A stretch of DNA of 64,000 nucleotides from Congeria kusceri (taxonomy: Eukaryota > Mollusca > Bivalvia > Myida > Dreissenidae): NCBI GenBank assembly GCA_027627225.1, contig CM051040.1, positions 24,982,134-25,046,133 on the forward strand, in the 5' to 3' direction. The position numbers and the translations under genes are program-made. Under the pieces are notes generated by a model. That model had not been told where the DNA came from and made no database searches. It was given only the letters and a program-made list of their open reading frames with translations. Numbering within the stretch: the stretch's first letter is position 1; each line of letters starts with the position of its first letter. Below, piece by piece: positions 1 through 42,241 of this stretch.

Positions 1-2782
1 AATCAATAGCAGCTTGTACCTTCTGGTTGTCAACGCTCAATCAGACAATTAATTATTTGTACATGCACTAATTCAGAAGACATGACCTTTCATTACATCG
101 CCCAATATTTAATTGGTTATGAAAGTATGCATTGTGGAAAATTCAAAGTGATAAAAATCAAATCAAACTCTTTTTTTTTCGAACTTTAAAATACACAATA
201 AACCAAATGAAAAATAATGTTTCTAACAAGTTCTATATGTAAACGTTTTCCAAGTACTTTGTTGTTTGTATTGGTATACTTTGTAAGTGTACAATTATCA
301 TTTTTCGAACTCTAAAATACACAACAAACCAAATGAAAAATAAATGTTTGTAACAAGTTCTATATGTAAACGTATTTCAAAGTACTTTGTATTGGCATAC
401 TTTTTACGTGCACAATGTATCATATATCCAACAAAGCTTATCGAAAGAAAAAATACTTTCCAGTACTTCGTTATTTTAGGAGCCACTAAGAACGGATGGC
501 GGATCACTTACTTGTATCAAACTCCAACAAGGGCTATTTGTAAAACAGTTATGTCACCGCTAGCTTAAAAGCAATCTTTAAATATCAAGTTTGGTGATGA
601 TCGGATAAGAACTTTTGGACATAGGGAGCGGAAACTGCTAACAGGCCAATTTTAAACAAATCAAGGGCCATAACTATGCAGTTCCTGTGGGGGTTTGGTT
701 GATCGAATTTGGAGAAGATATTACAGCTTCAAACATTTTCAACACGTTTGGTGAAGATTAGATAAAGACCGTTGGACTTTGGAAACCGCTCAATCGGCCC
801 AATTTTAGATAATTCAAGGGCCATAACTCCATAATTCCTAGGGCGATTTGGCTTATCAAACTCGGTCGAGATAATATACCGATAAATAAGTTTGGTTAAG
901 ACTGGATGAAAACTGTTGGATTAAGAGAGCGGAAACAAAAATGGTCTACCGGCCGACAAACCGACCGACAGACAGACCGACCGACCGTCATTAGCAAACA
1001 AATATACCACGCCATCTTTGATGGGAGGGGGGGGGATTAACCTTCCCATTAAATCTGCTATAATGCATGTTACTTATGATGTACAACAAAGTTTTTGAAA
1101 TTCGCATGTTGTTAAATATAGTAAAACGTATTGTATTCACATTATAATAATGATTCGGTCTTTCCAATAAGATAACCATGAGCGTCTTAATGAAGTTACG
1201 ATATGTGGTTGTGCCCCCTTATAAAAATGATCACCGGAATATATCAGGATTTTGTAATTGCATACATATTTCTTCTGCAACCTTATCTACAGCAAGAAAA
1301 TCTATAATGAAATAAAAACTCCACCGCAAATGAAACGTATGTGGTAAATGATAAATCACGTTTCAGATTATCTGCCTTCATACCAGTGTGTATGCAATGA
1401 CGTCAATGCTTTTACAAAAATTCACATCGTAGAAATAAGAATGCATTGCAAGACATTTTGAAATTGATATTTATGAAACGTATGTGTCTTAGATAAATGA
1501 AGTACAACTGCATTATATATAACCGAACTCTGTAGAGGGAGCGCGAATCGAACATTTATCGAACCAGGTTCGAACCAGCATTATCGCTGTGCATCGATGG
1601 GGGAGCATCTTCAAGTGCAAACCAGCAGAATCGAACATTCACGTACACTGAGTCTGAAAGGTTCTTATTACATGTAGCATCTATCTATTTATTACGCTGT
1701 TGCGTTTATATTCGAAGCAGCATTTTTGAATGCCAAGTGTACAGCGTTTAATTGGAAAACTTATTCCGTCTGATTTCAAATCTCTTGACGGTCGACATTA
1801 TCTTGTTCATAAAACGAAAAGATGTTCGATAAATATTTTGCGATACAAAATCGCAAATCTGGTTCGTGCAATTACGATCCATATCTATTTTATTGTTTAT
1901 TTTCTATATTCGATTCATTTGCTGTCATATTGTACTGATAGTAGGTAGTCTGTATTGATAAAGGTATAATGTGTTTGACGATATAACAACAAAACATCGG
2001 TTAGAAACTACGTCTTAACGGTCCACGGAATGCAAGACGATATGCATCTGGACTCTGTTGCAATAACATTGTGCAAAGATATATGAATTCCATTCAGTTC
2101 GTAAAACATCATCACCAAAGGAACATCGAATTCTGTTCTTTAAATGTTATACATGTAAACTTTCAAATTTTCGCGGTGATCGGTCATTTTACGAAATGAA
2201 ACCCGGGTCCGACATTTTTAGACTTTAGAAATACGAACATACTTTGATTGAAAACATATTTATTGTGTCTTTAAAAATATGTTGCTACTTTCATTAACAA
2301 ATCGTTTTAAAGCAGCAATCCAGAAATATGTTACTTTTGAACAAATCGTTTCTAATGGACATCTTACCGATAAGAATACAAAAAAAAACGCATTGAAATC
2401 GGTAAAATAATGACGTTTTGGTAACTTTTTATCGTAAAATTATCTGTACGTGATAGCTGGTGATGCCTCTGAAGTAAATAAGCATGTACATTAGTGTATA
2501 TGCCGTTCGTACCAAGCGTTTTTGAACATAGATATTACAAAATGCCTTTTGTAAATAAGAAACAGCTGTCTGTAGAATACACGACATAAACTTTCATTAG
2601 AAGTAATGACAGTTTAGGATGTATTGAATTATATTCTATGGACTGCGGTTTTAAATAAAAATGTTTCAATTGGAGTTGGTGATTACCAAGTAAGATTCAA
2701 ATAACGGCCTATTTAGAACAGAGCAGTTTTAAGAAAATTCTTTATTTTAAGTCTAAACTCTCAGAATGGGTTGGTGAAAACG
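1..2782. repeat. Inverted repeat A, left arm (2.8 kb)
   Basis: Reading 1-2782 as reverse complement gives 18211-21006 with only scattered substitutions and small indels. The arm runs to the window edge, so it may extend further left. Its inner end is sharp: after position 2782 the two arms share nothing. It contains a 160-bp tandem repeat block (589-1010) and otherwise AT-rich DNA with no credible gene. Short frames inside it (for example 1730-1948) have decayed mirror images at 19055-19252. Confidence 0.93.
589..1010. repeat. Imperfect 160-bp tandem repeat ending in a GACC/GACA run
   Basis: Three related units begin near 589, 749 and 891, each with a phrase close to GTTTGGTGAAGAT followed by AAGGGCCATAACT. 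The block ends in a short run of CCGACCGACAGACC (about 950-987) and then a G run (1025-1034). Similar short tandem cores next to a tetranucleotide tract occur in the pearl-type elements of bivalves, but I cannot confirm the family. The mirrored copy is at about 19990-20430. Confidence 0.6.
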
Positions 2783-5700
2783 AGCCCAGGCGTTGCCTAT
2801 ATTCATTTGCAATGTACATATAATAGAACGGGTGAAAGTTCATTTCACTGATATTTTTCATAAAATAGTCAGCGTTCTGAACACATATTAAATGTTCAAA
2901 ATGTATGACACTAAAACACGATGTATACGTGTAAATATGCAGTTAGGTATTATTCGGTTACAGAATGTTGCGAAAGAAGGTTCCCATATTTTTGTTGAAT
3001 TTGATGTTTATTATTAATATATTTTACCACATGGTACACATGTGTAAACTGCAAAAATAAATTAATATTACTTGTTTAAATACACGGGAAATATGAAATG
3101 TTCTTCCCTATATACACATACTCTTTTTTTTATTCGAGAGAATGTATACTGCCAGAAAAAGAGAATATCTGGTGCCTACAGATTTACAAAGTAATATATT
3201 GTGGATATCACTTATTTTGAAATGCTTCATTAACACGACTAGCTTGTTGCAATGCATGCGATATGTCTTATTTAAATGTGAACTTCAAACCAGACATAGG
3301 TAATTTATTACTCGAAATAAAATAATTATTGATTGGTGAATTTTGTCATTTTACCACAATAATTCAGTGTCATGAATTATCACTACTTCCCAAGCAATTT
3401 AATCGTCTGTGAACGTCTAAGTTTCGTAAGTGTTTGTTTAGGGGGAAAAAAAACAGTCATTCGTTTTGACTTTTCTGTTGCTGCAAAATAAATTGTATTG
3501 GCTTAATCAGGGCCATAAATACTGGTCTGCTTAACGCTTGACGTTTAAGCGACTCTTGCAAAGTAATATTCATTTTTGTCTGCGCAAGAAGAAAAACAGA
3601 ACATTGTATGTCGTTTTTTATTTGTGCAAATTCGAATACTGAATGTTATATCAACACTGTAAATGATTCATGTAAATACTTTGTCACGTGTATGTGCTAA
3701 TTGAAATGATGCAATACAAAAAATTAGTTGTGTGCAGAGACGGTAAATTCTTAAAAACAAGAGGAATTCCCATTCACTTATAATGTTTGAGTAGCAAAAA
3801 TATATTGACGTAATCTTAAAAAATATATACAACGACAGTTTATTTATGAGCGGTCTTAGTAGGTACACGTTACAAAATCACACACTTCAATGAAAACTTA
3901 CCAACGATACAATGCAATTGAATGACATTATAATACAAAAAAACGATAACTTGAATTCATATGAACCGTAGAGTTTATTGAATATATCCTTAAGTAAAAA
4001 GTGTCGAACATGATAAGACTTAGTATATTAAAATAAAATATATGAACTAGGCATAATAATGATACTAAATTGTTCACCAAGTGAACGTACACAAGAGAAA
4101 ACTAAGTAAAAAGTCAAAACGTTCAATATCTTGTAATGTTAAGAAAACGCGGATATTGCGATGCGTTAAATACACTAGATTGCATTTGCATTTATATGAA
4201 GAAATACATATAGGATCTGACACGAGTTGTCATTTCATACCATATATTTTATTAAACGAGTTCAATAGTTTTGTTAGTAAGCGAGCCTTTGAATTACACG
4301 GAAAACAATGTATGGCATGTGATAAAACATTCTTTGCAACGCACTGTCTGGGAATTCATCGACATAGTTTACAATGCAATTGTACGTCATCTACTCTATG
4401 AAACCGCATATATTTATTTCTGATGATAATTTGGATGCAAAGATGACAAAGTGTTTTAGATACCTTTTGAACTATTCATGGTGTTTCGAAATTTCTGACT
4501 TAAGGATACACAATGTATCATTTCCGTTTTTAGAGTCAATAGTTTCACAATAGATCTTAAAACAGTGTGCTTATACTATCGTTGAAAACGTAAAAGGCCG
4601 TAGCGTAATTGTGCATCATAGCCTGGTTTGAAATAATATGGAGTAAACCGTTAGCACTGTTATTTAAGATGACTAATGGCTGTCTGTAGGAATATGTAGT
4701 TTTAAACACAGATTAAAAATACTAAATTTACACTGGAAGCGGGAGTTTTTTGTGTTTAACTCTGTCGTTTTCGATAGCGTCATTTATACCACCGATTGCA
4801 ACTGCTCGTGCTCATAGGTTTCCAATTAATACTTCTCACAGACTGCTTGTATTCATATACTTTTTTACTTAGATAAATTTACATTATTATCGTCGCAAAC
4901 ATGTGGAGCAGCCACAATACAAACTGCTAATATTAAAACTATATAGCTGAACTATGGAAATATTTAGGATCGAGAAAGACTACATGTTGCTGCTTAAACG
5001 GAGCAGGACGGAGATACTTTGTTTTCTAATAATTTGCTAAATGCATGGGTTTTATGAGTATAGTGCTTCTAATTAAGGTTTTGAAACACTTGTTTTCATA
5101 GTCATATAATTTTTAATATGCCATTTTTCTAAAGATATTCAATATTCCAGTGTTGACCAGCCTTGAGGGACAACAATGGCAACCAAAACGGAGTAGGGTG
5201 CAGAACCCTGCTATTTGCCTCTAGATCTTTCACTAGCTGAAATAAAATGACGATGGTGTGTGGCAACGTGTTTGCCGTTGTACCTATAAGCAAGGTTAAC
5301 ATTTGCATTTGCATGACATTGACCCGAACAACATGTTTATCTTCTCTTTCGGACTTTCAGTCATTGCCGTAGTTAACCAAACATCGGAAAGTCAGACAGA
5401 AAAATCTGGCATATCAGATTTATGATTAAACCCTATTAATGGATAATCTCTGTCCTGTCTTATTAAAATGATGTGTATCCTTCCCAGTTAAGCATATTTT
5501 GCCAAACAAAATCCAAACATAACGAATACAATACAGCCCTGTTGCTATTTTTATCATTTCTTATTAAGTTTAAACCTTCATTTTTGTTTTAATTTTTTAA
5601 GCAACGCGGTAGAAATAGCGCCATCAACGAACGGCAATTAAAAAAATAACAACAACACAACAACTAAACATTTAAAGAATAAGTTTGGTTAATGCGTTTA

Positions 5701-6443
5701 TGGTTTATGTATTACGACACTGGACACGTTTTTCAGATGTTGAAAGTTTTCAGTATATAAGTCTAATTTCAAAATATAATATGTCATTAACATTTTAATA
5801 ACAACTTACGCCACCATGATAACATTGATGATTATAATCATCAATCTTTATGAACTATATAATTATATACTAAACATAAAAAATTATGACTATTCTTACA
5901 TCATTTACACATTGGAAATGTTTTAACATGCGTGCCACATATAATATACAGACATCCCCATGCTCTACGAGTATATAAAGAACATGTTGTTTTTGTAACC
6001 ATTACGTTTAATATGCAGTAATTTTAAATCATGATTGCTCTATAATTTTTTAATGATTTTCCTTTATTTCATTTCTATACTATATCACATATAAAATAGA
6101 TCATATCACACAATTCAAATCATTTTAATTCAATGTTTTTACTGGATAAACATACAAATAAGATGCAAAACGATTATAGCAAAACATCAACAAAATATTA
6201 TTGTTAGTAATCGGAAATAAGCTTTCGGGCTTTTCTCTTGGCTATCATATGCTACTACACACGCTCACTGGGACAAGTGTACTGTACCTCACTTTGAAGT
6301 GAGTCAAATAATGTCTTTAAACCGATTCTAAATACTATTATAATAAGTAGCATATTTAATTGTATTGAAGTTAATAATGACTTTTTATTGGTTTGTGCTT
6401 GTACTTAAAGAGATAAAGTTTGCCCTTTAATTGCTTCTGACAT
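2783..6443. other. Spacer U1, single copy in this window
   Basis: This AT-rich stretch lies between the inner end of arm A and the first copy of block S, and I found no second copy of it in the window. Apart from the 4081-4401 open frame, it holds only short open frames without recognisable domains. A perfect 22-bp palindrome lies at 5824-5845, centred on ATTATAAT. No RNA gene or clear promoter was seen. Confidence 0.6.
4081..4401 (+). CDS. Orphan open frame with a zinc-finger-like C-terminus
   Basis: I do not recognise this 106-codon frame. It begins at a GTG, so the start is arbitrary; a first exon may lie upstream. The N-terminal 30 residues are very basic (many Lys and Arg). Near the C-terminus, residues about 77-99 show the spacing Cys-x2-Cys-x12-His-x5-Cys with a Phe and a Leu between the pairs, which resembles a C2H2/C2HC finger. 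The frame ends at a TGA at 4399-4401. There is no neighbour to assign a role, and no second copy in the window to test conservation. It may be a gene or transposon exon remnant, or a chance frame. Confidence 0.25.
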   Translation: MNVHKRKLSKKSKRSISCNVKKTRILRCVKYTRLHLHLYEEIHIGSDTSCHFIPYILLNEFNSFVSKRAFELHGKQCMACDKTFFATHCLGIHRHSLQCNCTSSTL

Positions 6444-6980
6444 TTTATAACTTGCGTATTAATTGTACCATTTTTAATATATCTGATTTGACTGTGTTAT
6501 GTTGTAATGTGTGTTTAACCTGAATAAATATACTAGTATATTAAATATACTACATATATCCATATTTGAACAGTATACCGGTAGATAAGCTTTGTTAAAT
6601 CTTTGTTCTATACTTATAGTAACTTGTTTGCTCACTATAAATATTTGTTCAAGTGAATTGTGTTATGGGAAATATCGTGAATAAGGAAAAACACTGAATA
6701 GCAAAGTATTTTTGAATGCGTGAATCTGGTGAATCTGCAAGCAATATTTAATTTATTGGCTCTTCTGTAACAAATAGAAATATATAACACTCATTGTACC
6801 ATTGAACCTTCATTCTAAAATAGATCTCTCTCTTGCCTGTGATTACATAATTATATGTATGTTCGATGCATGCGGTGTTTGACGTACAATGATTCATTGT
6901 TAATACATTCTTCGTCATGTCTTTGTAAACAATTTTAACTACAATTATAAAATCCGTTATTTATTAAAGGTAAGAACACA

Positions 6981-7118
6981 ATGTGCTATAAACGGAAAGC
7001 AAAAGATTATCCGAGAATAGAAGGGATTGAAGACTTACATCTACGATATCTATTTGATTTATGTTCGCGGCAACAGCTGCGTTTCATGATTTTTAAAACG
7101 CATGTTCTACTGTTTTAA
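6981..7118 (+). pseudogene. Small conserved frame, disrupted in its paralogues
   Basis: A 45-codon frame from ATG to TAA, rich in charged residues (begins MCYKRKAKDYPRI). Paralogous DNA at 11971-12110 has an early in-frame stop, and the copy at 26485-26620 carries two extra T in a T run, which shifts the frame. The similarity is therefore at the DNA level, and a coding role is not supported. I do not recognise a family. Confidence 0.2.
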
Positions 7119-8707
7119 AAGCAAATCTGATGACGAAACAAAGCTGTTCAGTAACGAAGTACAGGCATATCCCGAGCGAGTTTTAAATGCCATTGTTAGT
7201 ATCTTAAAACGCTGTGGCGCTTTGCAATGCTAAACAAATTGTTGGATTAAATTTAGCATTGAAATAAACAATTCGTATCCATGCATACGCCCACATCATA
7301 GGGTGTAGCTATTGTAGAAATAAAGTTACGGAGACTAATACACCAAACAAACATAGGGCTGGCCCACAATAGGTCAGATTATTTCTACCACTCTAATGAT
7401 TTAATCAGAAAATAGTGCTTTGATACACAGTCGGTGAATATAGCTGAACATGGCCCAGTGATATGCACAATAAATAAATTGACAGCTGTAACAAAATACA
7501 TAATGTATTAGTTGATGGGGAATACCCAATTAGTCTCGAGGTTGTAGTCATTCACGCAATATCAAAAGATCTTAAGAGTTTATTTTGACGCCGACTTATA
7601 CCATAGACTGCTCCGTAGATGTGGATGTGAATACCGATATATGTTTTGCTTTTAATCAATACATATGAATTACTTTAATGTGGCAACAAACAACATTATG
7701 TTGTTGATGAAGATCTATAAATTATTAAAATAAAGAATATAATCTGTCAAATAATTATTCTGTGAACAAACTTTCATTAGACCCCTAGATAAAATATATA
7801 TTGGATAGTGAAACCTATTTTTATTTTAAGAAACGTTGGTTTTTTCGTTATTTTGGGTTATTTGCCTTTTAATGATGTTTTTACAAATAAGTCCCATAGC
7901 AATACCTGGGGAATATTCAAATACACTTTTGGAGGCCATTTGTTCGAAACTGGAAACCCTGCTAATAACGAATCATGTTATGTATGTCTTCCGTGTTCAC
8001 GAGTGTTTTAACGGACGACTTATGACCCAGTGATCGGGGAGGTAAATGTGAAAGTCGGCTGAAGATGTATATCGTAGCAGACTATAAACAGAACCTTTAC
8101 CTTTACCTTTTATTGATGGGCTGATTGCAAATAGTCAATTTAATGTCAATCATTTCGATAACACCTGATAAGGATCACGATATTAAAAGTTCACAGAGAA
8201 TAATAAATATACTTTCAGCTGGATAGAAACGTTCATTCTTAAATGCGCGTACTCATGCTAATATAATACGCAGACATTGACGTAGGTAAAATCCAATGCG
8301 TTCCCAGGTGGTGACCCCAGTTTTAAATAATATTTGTGTATTACATGTATGCAAAATGTTTATTTCGTGTCGTTTTCATTGTGATGTGTTGTCTTGGCAA
8401 TGGGTCATTTGACTGAAATAAATGATCGCAGGATATTAATAAGGGTTTGTTTCCTAACGCAGTTTCAAATGTAGAATATTGTTATTATCATGGCAAATTA
8501 TTTGACGTCGTCCACGCAAGACAGACTCTTTTTAAAACAAGTGTGCGCATATACAATGCGTCCTAAATACAACTGTTTATATTAAAACAATAGAAAAAAC
8601 AACAACATAGAATCAGATAGAAGAATTCGTAACACATTAAACTGTACACTCGAATATTATTGCGGAATAACATAACTTTCATAATGCACATTTAATATAA
8701 TTTTAGG

Positions 8708-8830
8708 TTAATACACGGCTACGTTGCGTCTTTAGGCCGTATCGGCGCATCTTCGACAGAATTGGCCCGAGGACCAATAATTACGAAGGTGCGCCGATAT
8801 GCCTAAAGGCGCAACAGAGCCGTGTTTTAA
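8708..8830. mobile_element. Foldback MITE-like hairpin bounded by TTAA
   Basis: Arms of about 50 bases (8712-8765 and 8774-8826) are near-perfect reverse complements and meet at a loop of fewer than ten bases. TTAA occurs immediately outside both arms (8708-8711 and 8827-8830), as expected for a TTAA-targeting DNA transposon derivative. No transposase is present, so the superfamily is not determined. The second copy is at 28299-28421. Confidence 0.65.
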
Positions 8831-8895
8831 CATTTTTATTACATACCTTCAACGCAAGTAGATTCAGCAAGATTTTAATTAGTTACAGCAATTTA

Positions 8896-9322
8896 TTATA
8901 CCAACGTACTGTACTTTTTAAAGCAAATACGTTTAAATACGTTCAGCACCTCTGGCGGAATTTCAAACAGCTCTCTCTCTCTCTCTGCCACCTTTCTTTG
9001 AAGCCAGTTTTTTACCCGATTAACGTCCGATTTCGTTTTTTCTTTTGCTATTTTCATTTTTCATGAAATCAACAAATTCATAGATATCAATTTTTCGCTC
9101 ATTGTCTTGAATATCGACGTCTAATTCCAACAAATAAGCTGCTAAAACGTTTAGAGTAAACTGCTCGGCAGCCATTTTGACGTTGCTAATGACGTCAAGC
9201 GCAGTTAACGACGGCGCGTGAAATCGATCGTATGCCATGCCCCTACCTGTTTCAGGCACAACAGCAAGTAGAACGGCCATATCGGCATATCTTCTGTGTA
9301 TGCCCGGATTTTTCAAATCCAT
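8896..9322 (-). pseudogene. Frameshifted remnant, possibly DUF3504/QRICH1-like N-terminal region
   Basis: On the minus strand a 100-codon frame starts with ATG at 9322 and stops at 9020. Immediately afterwards another frame continues to a stop at 8896. Across the junction the residues read like a helical linker (FVDFMKNENSKRKNEIGR, then VKNWLQRKVAERE and EIPPEVLNVFKR). Runs of this type, with an NWL motif followed by a D/E-IPP-x-x-L motif, occur upstream of the Crypton-derived DUF3504 domain in QRICH1/ZMYM-like proteins. That match is from memory and uncertain. A GA dinucleotide run lies in the second frame. The paralogue at 28487-28913 has four replacement and two silent changes in the first frame and the same break, which suggests it was already dead when S was duplicated. 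Confidence 0.4.
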
Positions 9323-9568
9323 ATCAGAAAGAAATCGACGTAATTTTGTTACTATTTATAGTAAGGTATGTAATAAGATTTACATATGACAGTACTTTAT
9401 TTGTGTCAGTCATATTTTTTTGGTACGATCGTAGAATCATTCAGTTGTGTAATCTTAACCAATCGCATCATGGAGTAAATTATAAGAACAAAGTCGGCAT
9501 TAAATATAAGTACTATTCTGATAGAAAACATTAAAAGTGAATTAAATGTTACGATGTAATACTTGGAC

Positions 9569-10570
9569 CCTTAAAGGGACTGTGTACATGTGTCTAAAAA
9601 AAGGGCATTGTGGCTAAAAAAAATCTGAAATTAAGAAATCAATACTGAAACAATATAACAATTAAAACAAGTAATATATCATAAGAAATGTTAACGCACT
9701 GTGAGATTAAAATCAATTCATGATATAGGTCGTGTTTGTTTGGGTCTTTTCTTGTTTACATTTTGACGTCAAACTTGCGAGTAACTTCTACAACCATGTT
9801 TGGCACGCAGGGTTTTCCGCAGGCTTGTTTCGCCCGACGGGCCCGACATACCTTCAAAGCAGTTGGTCCTTTGAGGACATGCTTAAAAAACGCAGACATG
9901 CCTTAATTTTCAAAGCGACCACTCTTAATCCCTTTATCTAATTACACAGGTCTTTATTCGAAGGGTCATAAACGAACACCATATTGATCGATAAGGTCTC
10001 ACTTCCATTAATGCGATTGTCAAGTAACTGAACAGTGTAGTGCCGCCCACAACGATCTCATTAGCCATTCAAATAAGGCGATTTTAAAGGCGGAGTTTAG
10101 ACCCTTATAACAACTAAAAAGTGTTCGACAACAAATACTAGCGCTTGCCAGGAAAAGTTAACAAGCATTTATGAACATTTCGTTATTATATTTACCATTA
10201 AATTGTTTCGGAGTAATTCCCTAATCCATTTCACATTTTGACAATTAAAGATATTGAAACGAATAGTGTAATAAAGTACCTCATTTTAAAACACAATTTG
10301 ACGTCGTCGAACGTCATTTTGTTCACATAAACACTATGCAATTGAGCGCGCGATCAGTACGCGCACGTTTTTCGCGACCTTGTGCATGATGACATAGTTT
10401 TCGCGCGCTTTGATGGAAAACACGCTTTTTACATGGAGATACATGACCGTATTTATTGTAGATTCGAACCGCGTATTCAAATATTTATTAACAATGTGAT
10501 TTTTTTGGCATTTACTGTCCGCATGTAGCATCCGTAAACAACTAATGAAAAAGAAAAGTTTTTGTAACAT
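9569..10570. other. Non-coding part of S with mollusc-type repeat start
   Basis: The phrase CTTAAAGGGACTGTGTACAT at 9569-9588 resembles the start of interspersed repeats common in mollusc genomes. I cannot define the other end. A minus-strand frame at 10334-10570 is present in both S copies but shows no recognisable domain. Nothing else could be supported. Confidence 0.3.
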
Positions 10571-10779
10571 TTAGCGGTCAAGACAGAATTTAAAAGAGGA
10601 AAAAGATAGGCTGTAAAACGAATCTTTATACCATGTAGGATTGAAAATCAATTTCCTAAATAATTTAAAAAAAATGCGGCCAAGTATATTTAATGTACAC
10701 TGCCTTCAAAGACGTTAGGTAAACACGTTTTATTCAGTGTAGAAAATCCCGGTAATTGCGATATTAGTAGGATAAATAA

Positions 10780-11110
10780 AATTTTGCCGATATCGCGGAG
10801 GTGGGGGTCGGCGATTCGGCTGAAATCGGAGAGGTGGGTTCAAGCGTTTAAGTACATTTCGGGGAAGTGGGCTCGGGCTATGAGGCCGATTACGAACGAT
10901 CTCGGGGGGAAGGGGTGTCGGGACCGATATTTTTCGCGGAGAGAGGGGGCTGGTTCGGGGATGCCGACAAACCTTCAAGAAATCCTGCGAGAAACCCTGG
11001 CACGTGCATTTCCAACAACTACAATAGCGTAGATGGTACAGCGCCGTCAATAGGCATTTATTCTAAGGACGCCGAAGTCGTGAATTCGATACCCACTCTG
11101 GGTTTTTGAA
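10780..11110 (+). repeat. GC-rich SINE-like element with tRNA-like A and B boxes
   Basis: This is a GC-rich island in an AT-rich region. An A-box-like TGGTACAGCGC lies at 11034-11044 and a B-box-like ATTCGATACC at 11084-11093, about 50 bases apart, followed by a T run at 11102-11106, which fits a tRNA-derived RNA polymerase III head. On the opposite strand the GC-rich part (about 10780-10990) translates to a proline-rich string starting GFSQDFLKV, a translated-repeat signature often seen in invertebrate genomes. How the head and the GC-rich part relate is unclear. Copy 2 is at about 30370-30698. Confidence 0.45.
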
Positions 11111-12287: not shown

Positions 12288-12290
12288 AAC

Positions 12291-12377
12291 ATATTGCATA
12301 TGTTTGTCAGAACATGTAGTGTGATCTATTTTATATTGCATATGTTTGTCAGAACATGTAGTGTGATCTATTTTATA
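12291..12377. repeat. 43-bp tandem duplication
   Basis: The phrase starting ATTGCATATGTTTGTCAGAA occurs twice in succession, each time ending in GATCTATTTTATA. The same duplication is present in S copy 2 at 31119-31205, so it predates the duplication of S. Confidence 0.85.
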
Positions 12378-30698: not shown

Positions 30699-32945
30699 AA
30701 CCATTAAGCCTCGATATATTCCTAACAAAAGCAGTCCAACATCAGAAATACACGAAATAATGGCACATGATATGTTTAGAAAATTAGCGCATTTTTATCG
30801 CATTGCGCTTTGTGGTTTTTGTCTGGAAGTGCATTCCATAAATGATTTCAGACACACACCTATTAACAGTAGCTGTTTCATTTGCAACTGAACAGATTAC
30901 GATACAATAACATTACAAAGGCATTCTTTTTCTGCTCTGTTACAGAGAATATTAGGGTTTGTTAGTTCTGAAGCTTAAGTGTTTGAAGTTAAGACATGTT
31001 TTGACATTAAAAAATAGGAAACTCTGTAAAAACTCGTACTTCCCTTTAATGAACGAAATGATCATTTACATACTGCGAATTTATCTTAAGAATGTGTGAA
31101 TGTGTGAATGTGTGAACATATTGCATATGTTTGTCAGAACATGTAGTGTGATCTATTTTATATTGCATATGTTTGTCAGAACATGTAGTGTGATCTATTT
31201 TATAATAACAAAACATATAGCACTTTTTAATTCATCAATGTTGATATGGACTGATAGCCATAAGAACATATATTTAACGACTGAATAAAAACGATAAAAC
31301 GAAAGAATTTGACACATACACACGAATGTGCACTTTTGGGAATAATGGACACGAAAATATATAAGCAGAATGTGCAACACCTTTTTTCGAGTATATGACA
31401 AAATTAGTGCGTTGTAAATGTATTGAAAATGCTACATTATTAATCAAAATGAATTACTGTATTTGCTATACTTTCCACATATTCTAATAACTATTTCGTA
31501 GGTCATCTGATAAATCTAGTAACGAACCAGGTTATTTATCTCTTAACTTCCATGTCTGCATAGTTCAATAAATCACATAGATGGGCTGATTGCAAAACGT
31601 CAATTTAATGCCAATCATTTCGATAACAAGTGATAAGGATCGCGATGGTAAAAGATCACACAGAACAATCAATATATAATTTCAGCCTGATAGGAACGTT
31701 CATTCCTTATTATTGTTGTTAGTTGTTCTCTGATTACAAATGTGGATTTCCTCACAATTCCATCAGCACATAACATTTTACCCTTTTACAAAACATAATT
31801 TCAGTTCAAATAATTATAAATCAGGAGCCGATTAACCTTGATATTTACAGCAAATGCAATGCACCCTCGCTGGTAGCGCAAGCCAATATATGACGGAGTT
31901 ATGCATGCTTCATTTAGTAAATTAATTTATTGTTTGTTTGTTTTTAAATCGCGTTGTGGTTTTGATTGGTTGGAAATATATTCCACTACTGTAGTAAATA
32001 CAGTTAATAAATCAAATATATTTAAAATGTTAAATCGCGTGAAATTATTATTGTATAACAATGCAATAACCTTATAAATTAAACTTTGGTAACAATGTTT
32101 TCAACTGTTTAACTATCAAATGATGTGCGACCAAATGACTTACAGAGATCGCAAATCATACCATAAATATTATTAAATTCAGATAATATGAGATGCAATG
32201 TGTTTAACCCGTACTTATGCGTAAATTTCTAGTCCTTAATATTTGGATGTTTAAAAAGTATCAATTTAAAAGTTTGCTTTAATCTATGTTTAAATTGTTT
32301 ATGTTTAATGTACTGGGCACAAATAATGCGCATATACATATTAACAGTACATATGATATTTGCGGCTAAACAGAACCTCGAGTAATTATATTACGAAAGC
32401 ACATGTATGTAAAGTTTAATTATCGCAGTTACTTAGAACGATGAAACAAAATATTCCGAGTAAACATTTAAATTAAATAATATTTTGCTTAGACACTTTC
32501 ATTGTTTCGCGGAACACGCAGCACATATATACAAAATAATCATATGCATGTCATTAAATACATTCGGTTTGACGGATTTACAAGAGATGCATCAATAAAA
32601 TAAATACAATAAGTCAGTTACTTTAACATCTTAATTTAATACAATATGGTTTTTCATCATATTTGCTGTTTTCGTAGTTCGTGAAAACTTGTAACTAGTT
32701 GTGTAAACAAAGCATGTGATATATTAACGCAATTTGGAAAGCTTTTACGTTATACAATGAGGAGAAAAGTTGTATTTCGAAACGAATGTATTTATCTTAT
32801 TTCTAATCATTTATCTCTGACTTGTATGGGGTGTCATATCATGGGCATATTCAATTTACAATTCTTTCAAATGCATATATACATATATAAACTTCGCACA
32901 TTGATTTCAATACATTCGCCCAACTTGTTTGTATTATATATTCAG

Positions 32946-33143
32946 GTGATTAAAATGAGTTTCAATTTAGATACAACTGTTTATACCAACGTACAACGTG
33001 GAACCCATTACCGACTGCGTAAACAAATAGATAAAATATGCACTATTCAATTAGTGAACTATTTACGCAATGGTGGTATTTTGGCGTATCCAGTAACGGA
33101 TTCCTTTGTCATGTATACTATTCACCTTATTGGCACACAATAA
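32946..33143 (+). CDS. Candidate terminal exon, S copy 2
   Basis: Counterpart of 14104-14301, with the same CAG acceptor-like border (ends 32945) and TAA. The open frame is extended upstream in this copy (to 32757) because a base deletion opens the preceding sequence, which argues that the upstream part is not coding. No family recognised. Confidence 0.25.
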   Translation: MIKMSFNLDTTVYTNVQRGTHYRLRKQIDKICTIQLVNYLRNGGILAYPVTDSFVMYTIHLIGTQ

Positions 33144-36100
33144 TACATTGACATAAACGTAAGATTGAACATATCAGATAATATTATCTCATGTTAGTGT
33201 AAATGCACACATAATGAGATAGGACAGCATTACGTTTTGTTAATATTTTGTTCGTTTTTTCCACTAATAGTAATATTTCTAAAATGTCGATACCTATTAC
33301 AAAAAAACAATTTTCAGTTCAGGCAACATTCACAATTTTCCAGTGTATGGTAATGACACAGTTGCCTTTATATAAATTGGTCGTATATTTTATATACATG
33401 GCACGTTTGGAATGTTTAAGTTTATGAAGCTAAAAACCGAATAGTATCATCAACATAAAACAACCACTTTAATATAAAATTGCAGTGTGCATATTTACGA
33501 GCTATTTTGTTCTTTTGCAGTTTTCGTATATCTGCTATTATATATATCTATATGGTCATGTTATTTTCACAATTAACATTACAAACATGTTTAAAAACAA
33601 CCTTATTTTAACATTGTGGAATATAGAAAATATTTATTATCCCGAATTGGATGAGCAACAATTTTTGTGTATTGATTAATGTGTTCTGTACAAAACACTT
33701 CGCATCTCCAAGTCCAATTTATTTCCCTGAGTAGACATCTGGGTTTTTTCGCACACAGATCTATCAACACATAACAGTTTACAATATAAAATAAACCTAT
33801 TTTCAGGTCCAATATTTATAAATCATAAATCTAGAGTTATTTAGCCTTGATATTTGTCCAGCAAACGCAGTGTATCTTCGCATGCAGCTCTCGCCAATAC
33901 TAGTTGGAATCACGCATGCTACATTTAGTTAATTAACTTGTGTTTAGAAAATCGCGGTGCGTATTGTTTTTGTTTGTTTGGAATTGTATTCCAAAACAAT
34001 ATAAGTAAGTCGTATCACCAATACGAATACGACTTACTTATTAACAATATGCTATATGCGACTGAATAGAACTCGGGAAAGTAACATGTGTCGCATATTA
34101 ACCAACAAAAATACATTTCGACCACATATGTGATTTGTGTACATAAGTATTACTTAACACAATCCTGTGTTTATGACACTAATGTTCAATTTATGACTGA
34201 TCAGATATGTAAAGCGTTTAGCGGTATACTTAATAAAAACATAGTATTATGACGTCACGATGGTTTTAATTACTTTAACAAATTTAATTTGATACAAATA
34301 TAGATAAAGTCGTAAAGCGCCTTCGTATATAATATGTTCCAACTTACAACCATGTGTACAGACCATGAGTGTGGATTTTTTAGTTAAGCGGGACAAAATC
34401 GTACGTTATAAAACAAGATGCAACCACGTATTTCGAAAAAGAAATTTTTCTGGTTCATAATTATTTCTCTCTGACATGTATGAGGTGTCATGAACATATT
34501 ACAGGCCTGTTGTAACAAATACACGTCGCTCATTATTTCGATGCAGTCCCCCAACAGGTGTATATAATTTCATGTAATTGTGCTACAAAATAGATAAACC
34601 TACAAAAACAAGGTTGTAATTACCAAAGGCATAACGGATGGGATAAAATAAATGCATTATTCAATTAGCAAAAATATGTACCAGTGAATGATACTTGAAT
34701 GCACATCGAAGCGTTAAACAGGATTGACTACACTACAATTTATTCACCTAGGAAATATTAATCAAACCCTATATAGTACATGTAACTATGTTATAATAAT
34801 GTTCACACATTGTCAAACTTAAAAAAAATCAAAATATAAAAGACACCTCCAAATTTAATCTTTTTGCATGTTAATGGTTCGATAGTAAATTAATTAGAAC
34901 ATATATTAAGTCAACATTCATTATCAGACAGAGATTTCGGCCATTACAAACCATAGGAAAGAATCCCCAAACATCTCTTACAAAGCATCTAGTATGTCGT
35001 TTAATGAACAAATCGACCAAATTACATAATGCGATTATAACGTGAAATGTGTTTTCTGTTTCATTGTATCGATTGGATCATTTCGATCTTTTGATAAGAA
35101 ACATGTCTCATGGAGGTGCTGTCAAATAGACGCGTTCCTGTTTCAAGCAATTTGTCACTAAAATTACATTAGTGATTTACCTGACATTGCACGTGTATTT
35201 TTAAAATACCGTGCAAGTCGTGTATAATCATCATCTGTAGACTTTTGGCTGTTATTAGACTACGCACCTACTAAAGTAATAAAATCACATCTTAGTGTTA
35301 ACCCTGTATGCAACAGCTCATTATTCAAACTGTAAAAAGCCATTCTGCAAGCTTTTTGGATTGACATTGCCACTGTGACATTGTAATTTTCATACCAAAG
35401 ATGCAACATTGGCTAAATTCATATGGAAATAGTATAGTATGCTTTCAGAGTGTAGTAAATCGCAATTACCAATAATCTGTATTGATCAACTATTGCATGC
35501 GATAACCAAATCCATTAAAATAATACATTATTACCGTCTAATTATCCAAGTTAGCAGCCGTATACACCAATGATAATATAATTATAATTTATCAATGTGG
35601 TAATTCGTAAGTGGGTAGATGTATAAACTGTCAAATGATTAAAAGTATGCTAGTATAAAGTATGTTTCAGTGACATATTCAGAATGGCTACCCAACTTAT
35701 TATTATAATTAGAACAGCACTAAATACAATATCACATATTGAATTATTTATAATAAGCCATTAGTAATTACTTTCGTTTGAGTGCAGAAAGCAATGTTTC
35801 TGTTTGTCCAATTTTCATTCGCTAAATTATAACCATTAGCTACGAAACAAGTATTTATGGTTCTGAAATCTTGTGTCTCCCAATATTATGACGTAAAAAC
35901 ACCAATTACAGAAAACATAAAACACCGACCACTATTTCAATCATAAGTACACACCCAGCTCCATTATACACGCACATACAAAATCTCCTATCTATTAATA
36001 TCTTACAAGAAGTAGTATACCAATACTACTGCCAGACGTTAGAAAGCATAAAGCCGTCTATCAGTTGTGCTCCATTGCCCGCTAACAATTCGTTGTTGAA

Positions 36101-36177
36101 ACGGTGAAAGCAGCTGTTGAAGGCATTTCAACTCTCTCTCACATGATCGTCCGATACTCTGTGGCACCAACAAAAAT

Positions 36178-37587
36178 ATGAACATGGTTCGGATTGTCAA
36201 GGTGTGCAAACTGTTTGCGCGTATAAAAAATAATTGGCTGATGCATGGGAAAATAGTATATTTAACTTATAATATGCTAGTATGCCGTAATCAAAGGGTC
36301 ATTAGATTCCGGCTAGATAAACGTTTATACAATAATATGCTAGTATGCCGTAATCAAAGGGTCATTAGATTCCGGCTAGATAAACGTTTATACAATAATA
36401 TGCTAGTATGCCGTAATCAAAGGGTCATTAGATTCCGGCTAGATAAACGTTTATACAATAATATGCTAGTATGCCGTAATCAAAGGGTCATTAGATTCCG
36501 GCTAGATAAACGTTTATACAATAATATGCTAGTATGCCATAATCAAAGGGTCATTAGATTCCGGCTAGATAAACGTTTATACAATAATATGCTAGTATGC
36601 CGTAATCAAAGGGTCATTAGATTCCGGCTAGATAAACGTTTATGCAATAATATGCTAGTATGCCGTAATCAAAGGGTCATTAGATTCCGGCTAGATAAAC
36701 GTTTATACAATAATATGCTAGTATGCCGTAATCAAAGGGTCATTAGATTCCGGCTAGATAAACGTTTATACAATAATATGCTAGTATGCCGTAATCAAAG
36801 GGTCATTAGATTCCGGCTAGATAAACGTTTATACAATAATATGCTAGTATGCCGTAATCAAAGGGTCATTAGATTCCGGCTAGATAAACGTTTATACAAT
36901 AATATGCTAGTATGCCGTAATCAAAGGGTCATTAGATTCCGGCTAGATAAACGTTTATACAATAATATGCTAGTATGCCGTAATCAAAGGGTCATTAGAT
37001 TCCGGCTAGATAAACGTTTATACAATAATATGCTAATATGCCGTAATCAAAGGGTCATTAGATTCCGGCTAGATAAACGTTTATACAATAATATGCTAGT
37101 ATGCCGTAATCAAAGGGTCATTAGATTCCGGCTAGATAAACGTTTATACAATAATATGCTAGTATGCCGTAATCAAAGGGTCCTTATATTCCGGCTAGAT
37201 AAAAGTTTATACAATAATATGCTAGTATGCCGTAATCAATGGGTCATTAGATTCCGGCTAGATAAACGTTTATACAATAATATGCTAGTATGCCGTAATC
37301 AATGGGTCATTAGATTCCGGCTAGATAAACGTTTATACAATAATATGCTAGTATGCCGTAATCAATGGGTCAGTAGATTCCGGCTAGATAAACGTTTATA
37401 CACTAATATGCTAGTATGCCGTAATCAAAGGGTCATTAGATTCCGGCTAGATAAACGTTTATACACTTATATGCTAGTATGCCGTAATCAAAGGGTCATT
37501 AGATTCCGGCTAGATAAACGTTTATACAATAATATGCTCAGGGTTATTGACATACCCTCATGGCAACATAGTAGTATCGCATTTTAG
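36178..37587 (+). repeat. 63-bp minisatellite, twenty units, forming a 469-codon frame
   Basis: The frame is 32 leader codons, twenty 21-codon units (36274-37533) and 17 trailing codons. The unit encodes MLVCRNQRVIRFRLDKRLYNN-type residues. Most units are identical at the DNA level; variants cluster in units 15-19 (for example CAATGGGTC for CAAAGGGTC in units 16-18), with isolated changes in units 5, 6 and 13. Copy 1 of S has one unit with the same leader and tail. The open frame follows from a unit length divisible by three and no stop in one phase. I see no signal peptide, domain or splice context supporting a protein. Confidence 0.9.
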
Positions 37588-37724
37588 GTCCTACATGATT
37601 TTCGTATATATATTTGATTCAAATGTGTATGTATTACCAATTAAAACGTGTTAGAGAGTTATCGAATTCCTTTTATCAATATGTTTCCGCATTCATTAAG
37701 TTAATAAAGTGTGACATGTAAACA

Positions 37725-37986
37725 GGGTCCGTATCCACAAAGCTCCTTAGTGAAAAGTTAAGTAAATTTCTTAAAATTATAAAACTCCTTAAGTCTTTGA
37801 CTTATTCATTTACCGTTTGTTTTGTCTTCAATGGTTTTAATCTGATGAAGAATCCACCGATGCTTCTGTTATTTGCACATTTTAAATATAAATTATTGAT
37901 TTTCACGTGGAAAATTGTATTTGATTTTTCACTTAAATATGACTTAAGTTAAATATTTTTCTAAGGAGCTTTGTGGATATGGTCCC
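37725..37986. mobile_element. MITE with 26-bp inverted ends, S copy 2
   Basis: Counterpart of 17700-17961 with the same termini and a few internal substitutions. It lies about 190 bases after the last 63-bp unit. Confidence 0.75.
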
Positions 37987-38236
37987 AGGTATTTATCTTC
38001 ATGGTGAATAAAAAAGCAAACACATGCCATCATTAAAGGTAACAAAGATGGCAATCAAATAATAAAATATGTCATTTTGCAGATGAACATGAATACTGTC
38101 AAAATTAACAAGTATTATAATTATATGATGTAGCAATGTGTATATAATATAATACCGTCACAATGTTTTGTTAATTAAAACAATCTACGGTAAAATTATT
38201 AGTGATAATTACAAATCGATTTCAACGTTCAATTGC

Positions 38237-39668
38237 ATATTGAAATGTATATAAATCGTAATAAAATTTACACAATCACATATAATGTACACATTGTATC
38301 TATACAACATGTATTGAGCCGTTTGTATTCACCATTTTCTTCGAATTAAAATACTCATCCGTTTTCCTTATCACATGCAAAAACCACGCCCGTCTACTTT
38401 ATCAGATTTTTAATAGCACAACGATGTTACGATAAACCATACGTATAAATATACTATGTCGGTTTTGCAAATTGGTTAAACATTCATATAATAAGACAAT
38501 TCTCTGTTTATATTTGATAAACACATTGCATTTTCTATTTTGTCACATATTTCAAAAAGAAATAATTATAATACAGGAATATTATTATTTGACTTAAAAA
38601 ATATTATAATATTAAGCGAGAATCTGGTCAGTTGTTTCGCTTGATACAATGTAAACCTAGGCAAAAAATTTCAAAACTCGGCCAATGCGGAAAAAAAAAC
38701 GCGGCCAATATGGAATAACGCGGCCAATACGAGATTCAGCCAATCAGGATTCGGGATTACCTCTGCCTAATACGAGATGTCAAGTTTTTTTGACGCTCAG
38801 CATAATTAACTTTGGGCTTTGTATTTTTACTAAAAGTTTCTACATGTAGCACTCCCACAAACTAAAGTGAGCTTGGGCAACATTCGTATGTTTTAATTTA
38901 TTGGACCGAGTCTACCGAGTGACGAATCATGAAATCCTGACGACGTCGACCACGAAAACATAGATTTACATCCCTTGAAGTATTCTTCAATATTGCGTTT
39001 GTTAATATAAACATGATGAAATTATTTATTAATATATTTGGATTAAAATTGGATTGGATGCACCTCAGAAGGGGAAGGGAATCGGCGAGTTAGCTGAGCG
39101 TTTGCTCTGTCAACTCGCCGACATCATCTTCACAATAACAAGAGAGGTTTCAGCTGAAAAGAGGCTGGTGGAAGGCTAAACGTTAGGATTTTGAAAAGTT
39201 GTTTAGTAAATTATTCATTTTATTTCACATCAAGTCGTCGACTTCAACTTCAAGAATGTCTTAAGCATATGCTGGAGCACACTTGGACTTTTTAAGAATA
39301 TTCTTAAACAAAATACTATTTGAATTAGACTTTTACAAGTATATTTTCTAGAGTCAGAGTCTATTCTTTATTCTTAAGTCTAAGAGTAAGAATGATTAAA
39401 GAAATGTGTTGTTGAATACTGACAGGTTTGCCAAGACTCGGTTGGATAACAGTGCATATCGATTGGTGGTGTTAAACCTTTTGCGACTTTCTTGAAAATG
39501 TTACGTTCTATTTATATCGAAACAATAGTTATGATAGATCTAACTTGTACTATTAAAACTAAACATTGTTGCATACTATTTCTATTTATAGCGAAACAAT
39601 AGTTTTGATACAATTAAAACCGAAATATGGTGCAAAATATTATAAAGTTGATTGATAAAATTGTTATT
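38237..39668. other. Spacer X right of S copy 2
   Basis: The first part (to about 38575) matches 58030-58380 in the older copy. About 38576-39735 is absent there, so it was inserted in copy 2 or lost in the other. Within it are four CGGCCAATA-like phrases at 38677-38745, a GC-rich hairpin at 39083-39120 with the arm CGGCGAGTT, and a diverged duplication around GAAACAATAGTT at 39517 and 39591. No gene was recognised. Confidence 0.6.
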
Positions 39669-40170
39669 AATTGGTTGAAATAATATTGGCCTTGTCATTG
39701 GGCTGAAGACAGCCTTATTGGCCTGAGGTCGTAACAATATAACTCGTAAAGGTGGTTCTCGAATTACCTAATAAAAAAGCTATTATAACACGAAGGACGT
39801 CACATACTTTAAATTCTGTCTTTCATTGTGATTATTACTATTGTCTATTGCAGAAGTAGGTTTAAACGTGTAATATATACATTCATATAATACATACATA
39901 TCAGATGCACAGTTAAGGTGCAAGACGTTGTTTCGAACAATTCACGTATAATTTCGAAATCTTTCAAAATAGACTTATTGACCTCACGTCAAATAAACTG
40001 CAAAACAAACTCATTCTAATTAATTTTGTAAGTGAATGTCTTTTAAAATAAACTTCATAGACGCTGTAGGCTCTGGTTCGATATTTCGATTCTAGACACC
40101 GCACCTGTTGAATCAGGATAATCACATCTAAATGCCCGCGCACATTACACTAGCGCATTAATCAAACAGG

Positions 40171-41012
40171 TATAATGGTCCAAAATGAACTGGGAAAAGG
40201 TATAAACAAGTGTTATCTCCCTAACTGCCGAATAACGGACTATTTCTGTTAAAGGTTATTTATAAAGAATCAGCCTAATAATAGACAATTTTGTAATGGT
40301 CCAAAATGAAATGGGAAAAGGTATAAACGAGTGTTATCTCCCTAACTGCCGAATAACGGACTATTTCTGTTAAAGGTTATTTATAAAGAATCAGCCTAAT
40401 AATAGTCAATTTTATAATGGTCTAAAATGAACTGGGAAAAGGTATAAACAAGTGTTATCTCCCTAACTGCCGAATAACGGACTATTTCTGTTAAAGGTTA
40501 TTTATAAAGAATCAGCCTAATAATAGACAATTTTATAATGGTCCAAAATGAACGCGGAAAAGGTATAAACGAGTGTTATCTCCCTAACTGCCGAATAACG
40601 GACTATTTCTGTTAAAGGTTATTTATAAAGAATCAGCCTAATAATAGACAATTTTATAATGGTCCAAAATGAACTGGGAAAAGGTATAAACAAGTGTTAT
40701 CTCCCTAACTGCCGAATAACGGACTATTTCTGTTAAAGGTTATTTATAAAGAATCAGCCTAATAATAGACAATTTTATAATGGTCCAAAATGAACTGGGA
40801 AAAGGTATAAACGAGTGTTATCTCCCTAACTGCCGAATAACGGACTATTTCTGTTAAAGGTTATTTATAAAGAATCAGCCTAATAATAGACAATTTTATA
40901 ATGGTCTAAAATGAACTGGGAAAAGGTATAAACAAGTGTTATCTCCCTAACTGCCGAATAACGGACTATTTCTGTTAAAGGTTATTTATAAAGAATCAGC
41001 CTAATAATATAC
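40171..41012. repeat. 121-bp tandem array, seven units, alternating variants
   Basis: Each unit has TGTTATCTCCCTAACTGCCG and AAGAATCAGCCTAATAATAG. Units alternate between ATAAACAAGTG (1, 3, 5, 7) and ATAAACGAGTG (2, 4, 6), so the array has a 242-bp higher-order period. The homologous arrays have six units (58839-59553) and one unit (about 25325-25440). Confidence 0.95.
41000..41012. repeat. Target-site duplication, left (PLE)
   Basis: CCTAATAATATAC, repeated at 44715-44727. It is the end of the last 121-bp unit; the older paralogous locus has one uninterrupted copy at about 59546-59558. Confidence 0.85.
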
Positions 41013-41015
41013 AAT

Positions 41016-41290
41016 TTTTTATATATATTATATTATATTGCTATAGGAAATATCTGTATTTTATATCCGTATAGTATTAAACTGTCTTGTATGTTGTAAA
41101 TTCTTTATTAATTTAAACATGTATACTTATTTCTATACGTTTTTCCGCCAAATAACGTAACGTTATTGCATGACGTCACGTCCGTTGTTTAATTGTCATT
41201 TTATCCTGATGAAGGCGTAAGCCGAAAAACGTTGAAAGATAAATTGAATTGACTGATTTCACGTGTTGTTGTTGAATTCTTCCACAATTA
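41016..41290 (+). repeat. PLE 5' pseudo-LTR
   Basis: Direct repeat of 44450-44714, with a small number of substitutions and a 2-base insertion in the ribozyme region. It starts in an A/T-rich run before TTGCTATAGGAAATATCTG and ends at TTCCACAATTA. Confidence 0.9.
41200..41244 (+). ncRNA. Hammerhead-ribozyme motif, 5' pseudo-LTR (core altered)
   Basis: CTGATGA at 41206-41212, stem II GGC-GTAA-GCC ending at 41223, GAAA at 41224-41227. Two extra A follow GAAA before CGTT, unlike the other two copies. This disrupts the usual one-step link from GAAA to stem III, so this copy is probably weak or inactive. Confidence 0.65.
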
Positions 41291-41313
41291 TTATGATTAT
41301 TTTAATCAACAAC

Positions 41314-42241
41314 ATGGCATCCACTGATCCACGTGTACGTCAACTAGAACAACTTGCGGAAAAACAGATGACAAGCGTTTAACATGCGAGATTCCTTGAA
41401 AACTGCCGCGCGGAAAATGTGATCCCGAAAGGACTCCGACTTAAGCTAACAGTGAATGTTGGCTGTAACGCATCAGATCTACAGAAATCTATAGACGACC
41501 TTCTACGGAAAGTCAGCGGGGACATTTGCGACCGAATCCGTGCTGATCACTTGCGGAAATCTATTGAATACGGCCGTCTTCTAGAAGAGACTAGACTAGG
41601 ACTTAAGAAAGAGAAGAATAATGTTGATATGTTCGACATCGATGTGGAAATTAATGACATAACGGAAAAGAAGAAAGATATACTACTAGTTAAGCACGAG
41701 AAGAAGCTACAATTTCTCAAAAAGTCTACCAGTGAACGCGCTGACGCCATTATTATCTCCTATGAAAAAACAGTCGAGCGGACAGAACAAATCATATCAA
41801 CATTCGTGCCGCCCTTAAAAAAACAAGCGTCTGGCAATCAGTCTGACACTAACCATGACACTATAAGACCCACCCTTTTAGTGTGCCTTCCGTAGACAAT
41901 CAAACATTAACAGCAAGTTCGATTCCAAAAAACGGGACGCCCCGGGCGCGAAGAAAACCTACGCAGAAGCCACGAAAAACGGGGCGAGACAACAAGCGAA
42001 CATGCCAATTCTACAGCCAACACTTCAAACTCTAATGAAGGTATTAACGGACCTTCATGCAGCCACAACAACAAAAGGAGCGGCGGAAGACGTCAAACAC
42101 GATTCATCAGTGTCCCAGACAAGAAGACATGGAGGAAAACCAAGCGGAGGCTTCGAAAGATACAGGCGGGAAAGAAGAAGGTTAGAACCTTCTTCTTTCC
42201 CGCCTGTATCTTTCGAACCTTTCATCATTACAGCTAAGTGA
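41314..42241 (+). pseudogene. PLE N-terminal ORF (broken)
   Basis: The ATG at 41314 starts MASTDPRVRQLEQ. A TAA at 41380-41382 stops it after 22 codons, at a position that is a Leu codon in the inverted copy. The frame resumes (41419-41895) with a Lys/Glu-rich, coiled-coil-like region, then shifts. A third frame (42002-42241) crosses a 66-bp palindrome. The product would be the region upstream of the reverse transcriptase core, of poorly understood role in PLEs. No catalytic residues are expected here. Confidence 0.75.
42152..42217. repeat. Perfect palindrome, 32-bp arms, 2-base loop
   Basis: The arm from 42152 (TTCGAAAGATACAGGCGGG...) to 42183 is exactly mirrored at 42186-42217, with AG between. 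Both arms carry GGGAAAGAAGAAGGTT or its complement. It lies between the N-terminal and reverse transcriptase parts of the PLE. Confidence 0.95.

What the first reader, a model, noticed from the sequence alone, without database searches (positions are those of the whole stretch)
1..41845. Complex duplication with inverted copies of both outer flanks between two direct copies
The order A, U1, S, A-inverted, M, B-inverted, S, X, B is seen directly. Both junctions (18210/18211 and 25949/25950) coincide with the ends of S, and only one or two shared bases are visible at each. A serial template-switching event, in which replication left S, copied A backwards, then B backwards, then re-entered S, would give this order in one episode. 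Scattered differences between arms argue against a very recent event. If this model holds, M (21007-24457) should be the reverse complement of sequence left of the window.
Basis: partly seen in the sequence, partly recalled or inferred. Interest (0 to 1): 0.75.

Follow-up and report, generated by a model that had tools for sequence, protein, structure and literature searches.

The report
Rearranged duplication in a clam genome
A 12-kilobase stretch of what looks like a clam genome occurs twice, and between the copies sit backward copies of pieces from both of its sides, as if DNA repair once copied and pasted nearby pieces together; this type of scrambled duplication is known from human disease and cancer genomes.

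Summary
The window reads A, U1, S, A-inverted, M, B-inverted, S, X, B. Ungapped identity is 98.4% for A, 99.0% for S and 98.7% for B over 2.8, 11 and 1.4 kb. The joins are abrupt, with 1 and 2 shared bases, which is what chance gives. M's left edge is only the window edge. An older, diverged relative of the region (74-92% identical) runs across the S|X boundary, so S-X is the original order and the S|A-inverted join is new. B contains the start of a Penelope-like retroelement whose empty target survives in that relative; the rearrangement came later. The nearest named protein is from the venerid clam Mercenaria. Best explanation: one copy-and-paste episode that recopied S with two inverted local templates, the pattern called 'local n-jump' or 'cycle of templated insertions' in cancer genomes. 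Serial template switching and joining of replicated broken ends cannot be told apart. Assembly error remains possible.

The parts
1..2782 (+). A: left outer flank segment, cut off by the window edge
   Evidence: 98.4% ungapped identity to 18211-21006 inverted
2783..6440 (+). U1: single-copy spacer between A and S
   Evidence: no second copy in the window at E 1e-4
6441..18211 (+). S, left copy (S1)
   Evidence: 99.0% ungapped identity to 25946-38236
18211..21006 (-). A-inverted; joins S1 with one shared base (18211)
21007..24455 (.). M: holds a 48-bp tandem array (21086-23050) and a trinucleotide run; left edge is the window edge of A, not a junction
   Evidence: outside itself it matches the window only by a simple-repeat stretch and by the hairpin at its left edge; arrays
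24456..25950 (-). B-inverted: holds the 5' pseudo-terminal repeat and N-terminal reading frame of a Penelope-like element, one unit of the 121-bp array, and about 0.5 kb of further flank
   Evidence: 98.7% ungapped identity to 39663-41845 inverted; joins S2 with two shared bases, 25949-25950
25949..38236 (+). S, right copy (S2), with a 20-unit 63-bp array at 36269-37538 against about one unit in S1
38237..39662 (+). X: single-copy spacer between S and B; its first 340 bp match the older relative, the rest (to 39732) lies in a stretch that the relative lacks
39663..41841 (+). B: flank, 121-bp array (40171-41018) and the start of a Penelope-like element
41014..44714 (+). Penelope-like retroelement: direct pseudo-terminal repeats of 275-277 bp, reverse transcriptase and GIY-YIG-like frames, 13-bp target duplication CCTAATAATATAC
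   Evidence: empty site in the older relative at 59548-59560
54823..63090 (+). P2: older diverged relative of 33502-49207, used as the outgroup
   Evidence: 74-92% identity in collinear pieces

Best explanation
This is a local, complex segmental duplication made in one copy-and-paste episode. The ancestral order was A-U1-S-X-B. During repair of a broken or stalled replication fork, one DNA end left S at its right end, was joined to an inverted copy of A (and probably of what lies left of A), then to an inverted copy of B, and then to the left end of S, after which the normal S-X-B order resumed. On the ancestral map the copy numbers read A 2, U1 1, S 2, X 1, B 2. In cancer-genome terms it is a local three-jump, or a cycle of templated insertions with local inverted templates. 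Shown: order, orientation, joins, similar divergence of the three pairs, and that the S|A-inverted join is the new one. Inferred: that it was one episode, that it was replicative, and that U1-S on the left is ancestral. Serial template switching and joining of replicated broken ends cannot be told apart. The two direct S copies should now allow homologous recombination to delete A-inverted-M-B-inverted and restore the old order (inference).
For: All three repeated segments are found where described. Both inverted pieces abut the ends of S to within 1-2 bases, so separate later insertions would have to hit those exact points. The older relative P2 is collinear across 38236 (38175-38576 with 57976-58374, 84%), while its match to the left copy stops at 18211 (18150-18211 with 57976-58038): the left join is derived and S-X ancestral. 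B-inverted carries the retroelement start together with about 0.6 kb of non-element flank (25332-25950, matching 39663-40295 including one array unit), so it is a segmental copy rather than a separate element insertion. Divergence is 1.6, 1.0 and 1.3% for A, S and B, with S windows spanning 0.3-1.8%. The same structural class is described in PMC7025897 (passages read): clusters with low-level gains, frequent inverted joins, tight breakpoints, and cycles that re-replicate a host segment.
Against: Divergences of the three pairs differ slightly (p = 0.024). Shared bases at the two joins are at chance level, so they give no positive sign of microhomology priming. The template of M and the partner of the third join (about 24456) are unresolved, so further events could hide there. 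No read data were available, and the arm divergence is like the 1.34% heterozygosity reported for Mercenaria mercenaria (PMC7831173, passage), so a haplotype artefact cannot be excluded.
Confidence: 0.6

Rival explanations
1. Stepwise origin: a tandem duplication of the whole A-to-B region, then an inversion of the middle X-B-M-A-U1, with loss of the inverted U1 and X at the two inversion breakpoints.
For: Read on the minus strand the middle block is B-M-A, the order a tandem duplication junction would give.
Against: Needs about four events, two of them deletions that end exactly at the inversion breakpoints; similar divergence of all pairs gives no sign of separate times.
Confidence: 0.15
2. 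Assembly artefact: the two S copies are alleles or mis-resolved graph paths (for example a normal locus A-U1-S-X-B plus a separate S-A'-M-B' molecule threaded through the shared S).
For: Arm divergence of 1.0-1.6% is like ordinary heterozygosity in a venerid clam (1.34%, PMC7831173, passage). Window base 1 falls exactly on the centre of a hairpin, which hints at a contig end.
Against: Inverted pieces with three abrupt joins are not what retained haplotigs normally give, and fold-back read errors should leave hardly any divergence between arms (both from general knowledge), whereas A and A-inverted differ at 44 of 2782 sites.
Confidence: 0.17
3. A circle made of S, A', M and B' formed first and re-entered the locus by homologous recombination within S.
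For: The observed order equals such an integration; divergence along S is mildly uneven (p = 0.037).
Against: Needs an extra intermediate; the circle itself would need the same three non-homologous joins.
Confidence: 0.05
4. Penelope-like element activity made the structure: such elements form head-to-head inverted copies and can capture host DNA between their terminal repeats.
For: B and B-inverted both carry the element's 5' end, head to head across S2 and X. Such inverted structures and captured host DNA are described in a rotifer (PMC3846280, passages).
Against: The B/B-inverted similarity includes non-element flank with the array and the left target duplication (about 0.6 kb in B-inverted, 1.35 kb in B), and B-inverted stops inside the reading frame rather than at an element end. 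The element explains nothing about A.
Confidence: 0.03

Closest known systems
Local n-jumps and cycles of templated insertions (PCAWG somatic structural variants, PMC7025897; passages read)
   Same: Low-level copy gain, inverted and non-inverted joins mixed, tightly grouped breakpoints on one chromosome, a host segment copied again around inserted templates
   Different: Somatic human tumours; here a small event in what looks like a clam genome, old enough for 1-1.6% divergence
Microhomology-mediated break-induced replication / FoSTeS complex duplications (PMC2621351; abstract and passages)
   Same: Discontinuous duplications with inverted pieces and short junction homology
   Different: Shared bases here are 1 and 2, against 2-5 bp in the human duplications named in that abstract, and at chance level
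Breakage-replication/fusion (PMC12807874; abstract and sections 9, 11, 13 read)
   Same: Duplicated segments joined end to end with insertions taken from sites near breakpoints
   Different: There the 126 insertions of the studied clone are short (median 184 bp) and from many sites; the strand and tiling tests used there need more insertions than are visible here
Duplication-inverted triplication-duplication germline rearrangements (named in a passage of PMC7025897; details recalled)
   Same: Inverted segment between direct copies
   Different: No triplicated segment of this event was seen here; S is in direct orientation and the inverted pieces are its outer flanks
Chicken Fibromelanosis locus, a heritable complex rearrangement in an animal (PMC3245302; search listing only; details recalled)
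   Same: A complex, inherited local rearrangement with duplicated segments in a non-human animal
   Different: Much larger and phenotype-causing (recalled); here small and without a recognised gene

Membership tests
Local n-jump / cycle of templated insertions | All pieces phase to one derivative molecule | tested here: inconclusive
   They do in the assembled sequence; no reads to confirm
Local n-jump / cycle of templated insertions | Low-level copy gain with inverted and direct joins, breakpoints tightly grouped | tested here: met
   A, S, B twice; U1 and X once; the visible breakpoints lie within about 42 kb of the window
Local n-jump / cycle of templated insertions | A host segment is re-replicated around the inserted templates | tested here: met
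   S flanks A-inverted/M/B-inverted in direct orientation
MMBIR / FoSTeS | Microhomology at joins (2-5 bp in the human duplications of PMC2621351) | tested here: inconclusive
   1 bp and 2 bp at two joins, chance probabilities 0.29 and 0.12; third join's partner unknown
MMBIR / FoSTeS | Raised point-mutation density near joins (recalled) | tested here: inconclusive
   differences per bin: A has 8 in the bin at the join (2401-2782) but 10 in the bin furthest from it; B has 9 of its 19 in the 400-bp bin at the join (39663); S has 2 in its first 500 bp and 3 in its last, shorter bin. Too few to judge
Breakage-replication/fusion | Adjacent parallel breakpoints from one ancestral end | tested here: inconclusive
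   The right ends of S (38236) and B (41841) face the same way 3.6 kb apart, but at this scale that is not informative
Penelope-like element (for the element in B) | Reverse transcriptase | tested here: met
   73% identity over 98% of the frame to a Mercenaria protein that matches RVT_1 above its curated cut-off; the window frame itself matches RVT_1 only below the cut-off (E 0.0086)
Penelope-like element (for the element in B) | GIY-YIG endonuclease | tested here: inconclusive
   Pfam GIY-YIG E 0.00066, 20.4 bits, just below the curated cut-off of 22.6
Penelope-like element (for the element in B) | Pseudo-terminal repeats and short target duplication | tested here: met
   Direct repeats 41014-41290 and 44440-44714, 13-bp target duplication with the empty site in P2

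The most novel reading that the evidence does not exclude
A germline cycle of templated insertions, a class best known from human tumours and genomic disorders, has become heritable and is still segregating in a wild bivalve, where the two direct S copies make it able to revert to the ancestral order by recombination.
Probability: 0.25. Interest if true: 0.4.

Novelty: new member of a known kind. Interest (0 to 1): 0.3.

Why it matters
If real, it is a base-resolved natural example, in what looks like a mollusc, of how a complex local duplication can arise in one step, with an internal outgroup copy that shows which join is new. Tandem duplication is credited with the expansion of several gene families in bivalves (PMC7831173, passage), and such events are one possible source. 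No host gene was recognised in the 16 frames scanned, so no function follows from it here.

Tried and rejected
Own-genome search for M (to test the left-of-window prediction): the same request was sent 14 times and never answered, so nothing is known about M, A or S elsewhere in the genome.

Structural RNA and tRNA: none at threshold in the window. Host genes: 16 reading frames were scanned with Pfam (6, 10), out of 12 frames of at least 130 aa and 118 of at least 65 aa outside the arrays and the element (the two lists overlap); so most frames were not scanned. The only matches that made sense were the two in the retroelement; four others (DUF863, SHE3, APH_6_hur, GP24_25) were weak and below their cut-offs. 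A 111-aa frame in S had no homologue at E 0.001 (2 candidates, none scored).

S as a mobile element: rejected, because the older relative runs through its right end without a break. B-inverted as an independent retroelement insertion: rejected, because it shares non-element flank with B. Fold-back read artefact: judged unlikely for A/A-inverted because of 44 differences in 2782. Mutation clustering at the joins: mixed, too few differences. Outgroup polarisation of S1/S2 differences: 5 derived in S1, 3 in S2, 8 unresolved of 16 in 2837 columns, and 8 of 8 unresolved in the last 768 columns; B/B-inverted 3 and 6 derived, 5 unresolved of 14 in 633 columns; too few to order events.

Literature: 6 answered searches, read as listings (rows shown of papers found: 20 of 41, 15 of 60, 15 of 293, 10 of 56, 8 of 8, 10 of 172). 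None of the titles or abstract openings shown describes such a structure in a mollusc; that is not proof of absence. Passages of PMC8905726 give Penelope elements as 0.36-0.50% of the Mercenaria assemblies.

Full report
What is there. The window is A+T-rich (33% G+C from the counts) and poor in long reading frames. Its longest recognisable coding unit is a retroelement whose reverse transcriptase frame is 73% identical to a protein of the clam Mercenaria mercenaria, the best of 1923 matches, 120 of them listed and many unnamed (Veneridae). The source is therefore probably a bivalve; this is an inference from a mobile element, not a species identification.

The duplication. The arms also differ by array length and indels: a 63-bp array has 20 units in S2 and about one in S1; a 121-bp array has 7 units in B and one in B-inverted; S1 has 762 bp that S2 lacks, and at that place S2 carries GAATGTGT three times in a row where S1 has it once. 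U1 and X have no second copy of the same age in the window.

The joins. One search places them exactly. S1 follows S2 through 18211, where A-inverted begins: one shared base. B-inverted continues through 25950 and S2 begins at 25949: two shared bases. Chance alone gives one or two shared bases with probability 0.29 and 0.12 in this composition.

Which order is old. The window also holds an older, diverged relative of the right part (33502-49207 against 54823-63090, 74-92% identical in collinear pieces). It crosses the S|X boundary without interruption (38175-38576 with 57976-58374, 84%), whereas its similarity to the left copy ends at 18211. So S-X is the original order and the S|A-inverted join is derived. 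The relative then lacks 38577-39732, most of X, and resumes in B at 39733. By symmetry U1-S is taken to be original on the left; this was not tested. The same relative shows the empty target of the retroelement: the element (41014-44714) is bounded by the 13-bp repeat CCTAATAATATAC, present once at the corresponding place in the relative. Because B-inverted holds the element's start plus about 0.6 kb of flank (1.35 kb in B, where the array is longer), the rearrangement postdates that insertion. Between the element's terminal repeats and the inverted copy, 9 substitutions are unique to the 3' repeat and none to the other two; a 2-base insertion is seen only in the 5' repeat of B. That fits an element insertion followed later by the rearrangement.

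Age. Divergences of 1.6, 1.0 and 1.3% differ only weakly (p = 0.024) and lie within the 0.3-1.8% per kb found along S (heterogeneity p = 0.037, using ten 1-kb windows and a 768-bp last piece, about 0.2 kb between them left out). They are compatible with one event. They also resemble the 1.34% heterozygosity reported for Mercenaria mercenaria (PMC7831173, passage), so in age the event resembles the separation of two ordinary alleles, and divergence cannot rule out an assembly that mixes haplotypes.

Mechanism. One copy-and-paste episode with three joins explains the whole order. A stepwise route needs a tandem duplication, an inversion and two deletions that end at the inversion breakpoints. 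Cancer-genome surveys describe the same class (PMC7025897, passages). Two mechanisms compete: serial template switching (PMC2621351, abstract and passages) and joining of replicated broken ends (PMC12807874, sections 9, 11, 13). The joins do not decide: the shared bases are at chance level; a study of human clustered copy-number changes lists absent or short microhomology of 1-4 bp among end-joining marks (PMC6258378, passage); and differences near the joins are mixed, with B highest at its join (9 of 19 in 400 bp), A second highest (8, against 10 at its far end) and S low (2 in 500 bp).

What is missing. The own-genome search, needed to test whether M is the reverse complement of what lies left of A, failed in all 14 tries (listed under Tried and rejected). 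A hint that the test may be impossible within this contig is that window base 1 matches the exact centre of a hairpin (20979-21032, 22 of 25 pairs; one of seven clusters of that quality in the window, which include one simple repeat, two copies of one hairpin in S1 and S2 and two overlapping ones). A random edge would fall within one base of such a centre about 3 times in 10,000 (7 x 3 / 64,000, my estimate), so window base 1 may be a contig end.

Verdict. Interest is modest.

Noticed in passing
20979-21032 and window base 1: A 25-bp hairpin (22 of 25 paired) is centred exactly where A-inverted aligns to the first base of the window, suggesting that the window starts at a contig end cut at the hairpin loop.
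   Followed up: partly
33502-49207 and 54823-63090: An older tandem-like duplication, 74-92% identical in pieces, collinear with insertions in the left copy.
   Followed up: partly
40171-41018 and 58858-59557: The 121-bp arrays are about 95-97% alike between the two old copies, although the flank beside the array in B-inverted is only 77% like its P2 counterpart over a stretch that includes one unit, which points to exchange or separate re-amplification of the array.
   Followed up: no
42152-42217: A perfect 32-bp-arm palindrome inside the Penelope-like element, between its N-terminal and reverse transcriptase frames.
   Followed up: no
36269-37538 versus 17441-17513: A 63-bp array of 20 units (mean pairwise difference 2.0%) in S2 against about one unit in S1; either a large expansion or a large contraction.
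   Followed up: partly
31090-31116 versus 11500-12290: S2 lacks 762 bp present in S1 and has GAATGTGT three times at that place, like a deletion scar with a locally copied insert.
   Followed up: no
63826-64000: A 26-bp tandem array with identical units (100% matches) runs to the right edge of the window.
   Followed up: no
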